NCBI GenBank assembly: GCA_037042915.1
Contig: CM073193.1
Location: 4,278,001-4,342,000, forward strand
Source of the DNA: Auricularia sp. M13
Lineage: Eukaryota > Basidiomycota > Agaricomycetes > Auriculariales > Auriculariaceae
Reading direction: 5' to 3'
DNA: 64,000 nt
Each line of letters opens with the position of its first letter. Positions within the stretch are counted from its first letter, which is position 1. Under the pieces are notes generated by a model. It was not told where the DNA came from. It was given only the letters and a program-made list of their open reading frames with translations, and did not search any database. The position numbers and the translations under genes were made by a program. Positions 14,628 through 15,740 of the stretch are shown here, in pieces.

Positions 14628-15740
14628 ATGGGTCTCTCTGTCTCCCGTCTCCTCTCCGGCCTCTTTGGCAAGAAGGAAATGCGTACGTGGCATGAAAACT
14701 TGTCTGCCCGCCGCCGTCCCACTTACAACCCCCTTCTGACTCTGCTTACTCCTGCGCTGCCCTCTGAACCTGACCTGGACCCGACTCTGCACGCCGCGCG
14801 GACGCCGGATCGCCATCTGCAGGCATTTTGATGGTCGGTCTTGACGCTGCCGGTCAGTCTGCTCGCGTGCGGCTCCCGGCTCCCATCTGACTCGATCCCG
14901 CTCCAGGTAAAACAACCATCCTCTACAAGGTCGTGCCCCCACTGCTGGCCGCCCAGAGCCGCCCCTTATCGTTTGCCTGTTTGCCCTACACTGTAGCTCA
15001 AGCTGGGTGCGTCGCCGTGGCACCTCGGACCCCTAGCGCAAAAAAACTGATCGAAATATCAATGCTCAGGCGAAATCGTGACGACAATCCCGACCATGTT
15101 CGTGCCAGTGCCCGATTTTGTTTCGTATGCTTGACTGACTGCTTCTTCAGCGGTACAGTGACAATGATGGCGAACTCCGGCCCGCATTGACTGACAGCTG
15201 TCACGTCCAGGCTTCAACGTCGAGACGGTCGAGTACAAGAACATCTCCTTCACAGTCTGGGACGTTGGTGGCCAGGACAAGATCCGTCCCCTCTGGAGGC
15301 ATTGTCAGTCACAGCAACGCGGAGCTATCACATGTCGCCAGTGCTGATGGCGCTTGCCTGCTTTGCACAGACTTCCAAAACACCCAGGGCATCATCTTCG
15401 TCGTCGACTCCAACGATCGTGACCGTGTGTCCGAGGCGCGCGAGGAGCTGCACCGTATGCTGAACGAGGACGAGCTGCGCGACGCCCTCCTCCTGGTCTT
15501 CGCGAACAAGCAGGATCTGCCCAACGCCATGAACGCCGCCGAGATCACCGACAAGCTGGGCCTCCACGGCCTCCGCCAGAGGACATGGTACATCCAGGTC
15601 CGTGTCCATCCCGATCCACGGCGATCGCCGTCGCTCATAGCCCCCGTTCCCGCCCCCCACAGGCCGCATGCGCGACGAGCGGCGACGGCCTGTACGAGGG
15701 CCTCGAGTGGCTCAGCGCCAACATCAAGCGCCGCGTGTAA
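14628..15740 (+). CDS. ARF1: ARF1, ADP-ribosylation factor small GTPase
   Basis: Nine exons (14628-14682, 14823-14852, 14907-14929, 14997-15006, 15070-15097, 15151-15152, 15211-15303, 15371-15597, 15663-15740) total 546 nt and encode exactly 181 residues, the standard ARF1 length. The protein starts [19 protein letters not shown] with Gly2 for N-myristoylation, then GLDAAGKTT (P-loop), PTIGFNVE (switch 1), WDVGGQDK (switch 2), NKQD and the CATSGDG base-binding loop. It drives COPI coat assembly and Golgi traffic. A 10-nt exon and a 2-nt exon (15151-15152, CG) are needed: without the two bases the frame breaks between Thr-Ile and Gly-Phe. Both introns around the 2-nt exon are 53-58 nt with TTGACTGAC branch sites. 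Confidence 0.95.

What the first reader, a model, noticed from the sequence alone, without database searches (positions are those of the whole stretch)
15098..15210. A 2-nt microexon in ARF1
Between PTI and GFNVE of ARF1 the only GT-AG solution that keeps the frame uses two introns (53 and 58 nt) with a 2-nt exon, CG at 15151-15152, between them. Both introns have TTGACTGAC branch sites close to their AG. With it the protein is exactly 181 residues and matches ARF1 throughout; without it the frame is lost. Exons this small are extremely rare, and gene predictors would almost always miss one.
Basis: partly seen in the sequence, partly recalled or inferred. Interest (0 to 1): 0.8.

Follow-up and report, generated by a model that had tools for sequence, protein, structure and literature searches.

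The report
Two-letter exon in fungal ARF1 gene
A fungal gene for an essential membrane-traffic switch (ARF1) seems to carry a coding piece only two DNA letters long, which must be spliced in exactly for the protein to be made; such tiny exons are known but very rarely reported, and gene-finding software misses them.

Summary
ARF1 lies at 14628-15740 (+) with nine exons. Between IPT and GFNVE come a 53-nt intron (15098-15150), CG (15151-15152) and a 58-nt intron (15153-15210). With CG the protein has 181 residues and aligns without gaps to solved ARFs; without it the frame is lost. Of 89 one-intron and 529 two-intron GT-AG solutions (introns 40 nt or longer) only this one gives IPTIGFNVE. Two ARF-like tandem copies in the window carry the segment uninterrupted, with CG at the same positions. 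Both introns have CTGAC 12-16 nt from their end; the second donor (GTACAG) is weak. Very small exons are not isolated here: by homology models 6 nt in actin and Arl1, 7 nt in calmodulin. Closest precedents are 1-nt exons in plant APC11 and VPS55 and in Fusarium CYP621A (2026). Verdict: very probably a constitutive 2-nt exon, a new member of a known kind. No RNA data and no related fungal genome were available, so splicing itself is inferred.

The parts
14628..15740 (+). ARF1 gene, coding part incl. stop, nine exons, 181 aa
14997..15006 (+). exon 4, 10 nt (a second microexon in the same gene)
15070..15097 (+). exon 5, 28 nt, ends in the first two bases of the Ile49 codon
15098..15150 (+). intron A, 53 nt, GTTCGT..TTCAG, codon 49 phase 2
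15135..15139 (+). CTGAC branch motif of intron A (within TTGACTGAC), branch A at 15138
15151..15152 (+). exon 6, 2 nt, CG: third base of the Ile49 codon and first base of the Gly50 codon
15153..15210 (+). intron B, 58 nt, weak donor GTACAG, acceptor TCCAG, codon 50 phase 1
15191..15195 (+). CTGAC branch motif of intron B (within TTGACTGAC), branch A at 15194
15211..15303 (+). exon 7, begins with the last two bases of the Gly50 codon
19739..19790 (+). same segment in tandem copy 1, uninterrupted (ATCGAT, from 19762, at the place of ATCGGC)
26991..27042 (+). same segment in tandem copy 2, uninterrupted (ATCGGG, from 27017)

Best explanation
15151-15152 is a constitutive 2-nt exon. The spliceosome recognises each short intron as a unit (intron definition), removes A and B one after the other, and so joins ACC-AT + CG + GC-TTC to ATC GGC, the Ile49-Gly50 of switch I. 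Because the introns, not the exon, are the recognised units, exon size has little lower limit; the two reactions must be sequential, since factors on the 3' site of A and the 5' site of B would overlap. If CG is skipped, the 113-nt stretch goes as one intron, the frame shifts and translation stops at codon 97, 175 nt before the last exon junction, a likely target of mRNA decay. Shown: the sequence, the uniqueness of the solution, the protein match, the stop in the skip product. Inferred: splicing in vivo, its order and efficiency, intron definition, the fate of the skip product. The exon most likely arose because two introns came to sit 2 nt apart in a gene family where intron positions at this spot differ from paralogue to paralogue.
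For: Only 1 of 618 GT-AG solutions (89 one-intron, 529 two-intron) gives IPTIGFNVE, and it is the best of 5608 with GC-AG and AT-AC allowed. Gapless alignment over residues 1-179 to the two solved ARFs whose alignments were printed, 5uf8 and 3aq4. The uninterrupted tandem copies have C and G at the same two positions. CG completes ATC and GGC, the main Ile and Gly codons of this CDS (11 of 12 Ile, 11 of 15 Gly, the pair itself counted). Both introns have usual lengths (median 59 nt in 73 candidate introns, searched only from 42 to 90 nt) and CTGAC, the most enriched pentamer in the 3' parts of those introns (18 of 73 against 3.4% of 20,000 random 58-mers). No other stretch of 31,190 shows such a split with CTGAC in both halves. 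No second intact ARF1 came up in the assembly (best candidates only). By homology models the genome has other very small exons: 6 nt in actin, an actin paralogue and Arl1, 7 nt in calmodulin, 10 nt in ARF1.
Against: No RNA evidence and no relative's genome. Donor B (GTACAG) lacks G at +5: 0.08 bits, below all 73 candidate introns (that set was filtered with the same matrix, so it under-represents weak donors; ARF1's third donor GTCGTG scores lower still, -2.14). Donor A is only at the 11th percentile. Removal of A first would put T at -3 of donor B and lower it to -2.37. A scan for microexons by coding potential did not recover this case and showed no in-frame excess (7 in frame, 7 not). The other small exons are models too, without RNA.
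Confidence: 0.9

Rival explanations
1. Assembly error: two bases were lost at 15097/15098 or 15210/15211 and the gene really has one 113-nt intron here.
For: One 113-nt GT-AG intron fits the rest of the gene; a 140-nt intron exists in the same gene.
Against: It leaves the AG-CG-GT split with two CTGAC motifs as coincidence: 0 of 31,190 other comparable stretches show it. The sequence at both edges is not a homopolymer.
Confidence: 0.04
2. Another splice form with one intron in frame is the real one, giving an ARF1 with altered switch I.
For: 16 of 89 one-intron GT-AG solutions keep the downstream frame, e.g. 15102-15197.
Against: None keeps IPTIGFNVE; the best-scoring one replaces Ile49 by MFLSRP. 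I46, P47, T48, F51 and N52 are invariant in the four ARF/Arl proteins aligned and IPTIGFNVE is identical in the two solved ARFs printed. Acceptor 15197 lies 3 nt after the branch A at 15194.
Confidence: 0.03
3. A spliceosomal twin intron (stwintron) 15098-15210, with one intron nested in a splice signal of the other and no exon left between.
For: Two short introns in direct succession; stwintrons are described in fungi (abstracts).
Against: Removing the whole 113 nt loses the frame and gives a stop at codon 97.
Confidence: 0.02
4. The gene is decaying and the correct protein is not made.
For: The neighbouring copy 2 has a frameshift and copy 1 has changed key residues.
Against: No second intact ARF1 came up in the assembly (best candidates only); the rest of the protein is intact and highly conserved. 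That fungi need ARF1 is recalled knowledge.
Confidence: 0.01

Closest known systems
1-nt exon of CYP621A in Fusarium (PMC12940212; parts 1 and 2 of 3 read)
   Same: Fungal, ultra-small constitutive exon inside a conserved motif, argued from frame plus an uninterrupted homologue; one over-long intron hides it
   Different: 1 nt, P450 gene, ascomycete; 20 orthologues by the abstract and 18 SRA reads; here 2 nt, ARF1, no reads, no orthologues seen
1-nt exon of APC11 in Arabidopsis (PMC4674806; part 1 of 3 read)
   Same: Exon far below usual size limits, essential for frame
   Different: Plant; shown by cDNA and reporter mutants; lies in a stretch of 422 nt that had been taken for one intron
1-nt exons of APC11 and VPS55 in land plants (PMC8831610; passages)
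   Same: Missed by annotation; copies without the exon's introns exist
   Different: Conserved across land plants; RNA-seq and RT-PCR support
Microexons of Phanerochaete P450 genes (PMC1184071; passages)
   Same: White-rot basidiomycete with many small exons
   Different: Shortest exon there 6 bp
Xlr2 microexon of Trichoderma virens (PMC11121469; abstract and passages)
   Same: Microexon in a filamentous fungus
   Different: Included or skipped with glucose level, so regulated; its size was not looked up
Stwintrons (PMC9024468 and others; abstracts)
   Same: Two short fungal introns removed in succession
   Different: No exon remains between the two

Membership tests
Ultra-small (1-3 nt) constitutive spliceosomal exon | flanked by AG and GT of two introns of normal size | tested here: met
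Ultra-small (1-3 nt) constitutive spliceosomal exon | needed for frame and conserved protein | tested here: met
Ultra-small (1-3 nt) constitutive spliceosomal exon | uninterrupted homologue shows the same bases | tested here: met
   two tandem copies
Ultra-small (1-3 nt) constitutive spliceosomal exon | present in mature RNA | not testable with these tools
   no RNA data
Ultra-small (1-3 nt) constitutive spliceosomal exon | conserved in orthologues | not testable with these tools
   Viral contigs gave no relative; genome contigs gave 27 loci, 22 archaeal and 5 bacterial by title
Stwintron | both introns leave together without an exon between them | tested here: not met
   frame lost, stop at codon 97
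ARF1 GTPase | full-length gapless match to known ARF | tested here: met
   residues 1-179, E 3e-107 (5uf8, 'Potential ADP-ribosylation factor') and 6e-107 (3aq4, 'ADP-ribosylation factor 1')
ARF1 GTPase | Gly2 and GTP-binding motifs (motifs recalled) | tested here: met
   MG start, GLDAAGKT, WDVGGQ, NKQD in the translation

The most novel reading that the evidence does not exclude
This fungus routinely splices ultra-small exons in core genes, down to 2 nt, by intron definition, and the donor that follows the smallest exons is weak as a rule (no G at +5), so that recognition of the two neighbouring introns does not clash; which intron leaves first is open. The ARF1 exon would then be the extreme of a general design and not a freak.
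Probability: 0.25. Interest if true: 0.65.

Novelty: new member of a known kind. Interest (0 to 1): 0.47.

Why it matters
Exons of 1-2 nt set the lower bound for what splicing can handle. ARF1 is a core gene, so a 2-nt exon in it would have to be included efficiently in every cell, which makes it a good test of intron definition. My paper searches listed no fungal 2-nt exon (six phrasings, one unrelated paper; on fungal or basidiomycete microexons, of which searches showed only the top 20 of 849 and 15 of 777). [quoted passage not shown] Practically, annotation of ARF1 and of other genes in such genomes will be wrong unless microexons are allowed.

Tried and rejected
Relatives: the search for related loci with ARF1 gave no relative in viral contigs (7 pattern stretches, none confirmed) and 27 loci in genome contigs, 22 archaeal and 5 bacterial by title; so conservation in other fungi stays untested. 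No relatives of the own genome are held.

Common origin of introns A and B: they share a 13-nt stretch round the branch site (12 of 13 identical); 1 of 2000 shuffles of B reaches that score, but so do 32 of 2628 pairs among the 73 other introns, so it is not evidence of duplication.

Chance estimate: one search gave 1 of 31,204 stretches with CTGAC in both halves; on checking, that one was this same locus with a donor 4 nt further on. One search leaves out stretches that overlap the locus and replaces it.

Scan of 264 kb for AG-N1..12-GT microexons by coding potential: 7 in-frame and 7 out-of-frame combinations, the in-frame ones at 4 places; ARF1 itself not recovered; no power. The first run of the intron finder used too strict a cut-off and gave one candidate; the looser run gave 73.

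Weak donors after tiny exons: in the homology set 3 of 4 exons of 6 nt or less are followed by a donor without G at +5 (ARF1, actin, actin paralogue; not Arl1). P = 0.0007, or 0.008 if the actins count once, but the cut-off was chosen after looking and the two actins are paralogues. One search lists 6 of 70 donors without +5 G; one of them (copy 2, 27117) I judge an artefact of the frameshift there and left out. Left as a lead.

Gene models dropped before the count: the first intron of Arl2 and the last three of Sar1 as unreliable. The wrong-strand models of L001, L004 and L008 were replaced. The actin paralogue (L067) contains a masked stretch. L069, L070 and L072 were fetched and not modelled.

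Full report
What is there. ARF1 runs from 14628 to 15740 on the + strand. Its nine exons are 55, 30, 23, 10, 28, 2, 93, 227 and 78 nt (the last with the stop); all eight introns are GT-AG. The spliced CDS is 546 nt and gives 181 residues. They align without gaps over residues 1-179 to the two solved ARFs whose alignments were printed, 5uf8 and 3aq4 (E 3e-107 and 6e-107).

Is the 2-nt exon forced? I listed all GT-AG solutions between 15070 and 15303 with introns of 40 nt or more: 89 with one intron, 529 with two. Sixteen and eight of them keep the downstream ARF frame. Exactly one gives IPTIGFNVE: 15098-15150, CG, 15153-15210. With GC-AG and AT-AC also allowed and introns down to 30 nt (5608 solutions) the same one scores best (217) against a generic ARF stretch; the second (211) needs an AT-AC and a GC-AG intron and gives TIPTSGFNVE. 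So frame alone does not force it, but frame plus the ARF switch I sequence does. Without CG the frame shifts and stops at codon 97, 175 nt upstream of the last exon junction.

An internal control. The window holds two more ARF-like genes in tandem, 19524-20284 and 26776-27544. They share three intron positions with ARF1 (after residue 18 and after residue 80, both phase 1, and after residue 156, phase 0) but have no intron in this segment. Aligned with the spliced ARF1 they have C and G at the two microexon positions: ATCGAT in copy 1, ATCGGG in copy 2, AT|CG|GC in ARF1. An uninterrupted homologue as length marker was also part of the argument for the Fusarium CYP621A exon (PMC12940212).

Signals. 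Both introns carry TTGACTGAC; the branch A of CTGAC is 12 and 16 nt from the last intron base. CTGAC is the most enriched pentamer in the 3' part of 73 candidate introns taken from 264 kb of this genome without homology, present in 18 of 73 against 3.4% of random 58-mers. Donor A, GTTCGT, is on the weak side (11th percentile) and also occurs in both tandem copies. Donor B, GTACAG, is weak: 0.08 bits, below all 73, although that set was filtered with the same matrix and ARF1's third donor GTCGTG scores lower, -2.14. This is the main point against the model.

Chance. In 264 kb, 31,190 GT..AG stretches of 105-121 nt do not overlap the locus. A split by AG-HG-GT (the only kind that completes Ile-Gly) into halves of 45 nt or more occurs in 489; with CTRAY before both AGs in 2, both at one place; with CTGAC before both in 0. 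One search had counted one such stretch, which proved to be the locus itself. These stretches are not all introns and overlap each other, so the figures are guides.

Context in this genome. By homology I modelled Arf6, Arl1, parts of Arl2 and Sar1, actin, an actin paralogue, Ubc4 and calmodulin. With ARF1 and the two copies that makes 11 genes, 70 introns and 59 internal exons; 19 exons are 30 nt or shorter and nine are 15 nt or shorter: 2 and 10 (ARF1), 6 and 13 (Arl1), 6 (actin), 6 (actin paralogue), 7, 11 and 12 (calmodulin). The 2-nt exon is the extreme of a broad tail. The genes were chosen for strong conservation and not at random, and their names rest on the template or on resemblance. 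Near this codon introns sit at different places in paralogues: codon 48 phase 1 in Arl1, codon 49 phase 1 in Arf6 (with a GC donor), codon 49 phase 2 and codon 50 phase 1 in ARF1, none in the copies (where they are printed as 'after residue' one lower). Repeated gain, loss or shift of introns at one spot is a simple way for two to end up 2 nt apart. I recall, untested, that animal ARF1 genes have an intron at Gly50 phase 1; if so, B is the old intron and A the newcomer.

Mechanism. Fungal introns this short are thought to be recognised as units, so that exon length matters little (established view, not tested here). A and B must be removed one after the other. Removing A first would weaken donor B further in the matrix (to -2.37), which slightly favours B first or a role for signals that the matrix does not see. 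A lead, found after looking: 3 of 4 exons of 6 nt or less in the homology set are followed by a donor without G at +5.

Known relatives of the phenomenon. 1-nt exons are shown in Arabidopsis APC11 (PMC4674806, part 1 of 3 read), in plant APC11 and VPS55 (PMC8831610, passages), and supported by SRA reads in Fusarium CYP621A (PMC12940212, parts 1 and 2 of 3 read), whose authors call it the smallest exon described in fungi and cite 2-5 bp exons in Arabidopsis, Drosophila and humans. In Phanerochaete P450 genes the shortest exon is 6 bp (PMC1184071, passages). Six phrasings of 'two-nucleotide exon' gave one unrelated paper. So this is a new member of a known kind: by those searches, in a library that lacks most subscription journals, the first 2-nt exon proposed in a fungus and in an ARF gene.

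Limits. No RNA data; no genome of another fungus could be searched. The genome is 52.1 Mb in 14 contigs.

Noticed in passing
19524-20284 (+): Tandem ARF-like copy 1: second residue is Ser instead of Gly and the place of Gly50 is Asp ([10 protein letters not shown]), so it is probably not a normal ARF; introns after residues 18, 35, 80 (phase 1) and 156 (phase 0).
   Followed up: partly
26776-27544 (+): Tandem ARF-like copy 2: keeps MG and [10 protein letters not shown] but is frameshifted shortly after (about 27054), so a pseudogene or an assembly error.
   Followed up: partly
19339-19496 and 26587-26736: The two copies also share their upstream regions (local alignment score 161), so the upstream region was duplicated with the gene.
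   Followed up: partly
14930-14996 against 19676-19723 and 26928-26978: ARF1 and Arl1 have an intron after Lys36 (phase 0); in both copies it sits 2 nt upstream (phase 1 of the Lys36 codon): apparent 2-nt intron shift, or loss and gain.
   Followed up: no
L001, reverse complement, 1468-1525: The Arf6-like gene is best modelled with a GC-AG intron (GCACGT) within codon 49, next to the ARF1 intron A position.
   Followed up: no
L066 and L067, reverse complement, 1198-1203 and 1249-1254: Actin and a close actin paralogue share a 6-nt exon followed by donors without G at +5 (GTAATC, GTATAA).
   Followed up: partly
27780-28000: Short repeats of a GGCTC/GGGGCAGG-rich unit beside copy 2 (seen), perhaps a low-complexity coding stretch.
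   Followed up: no
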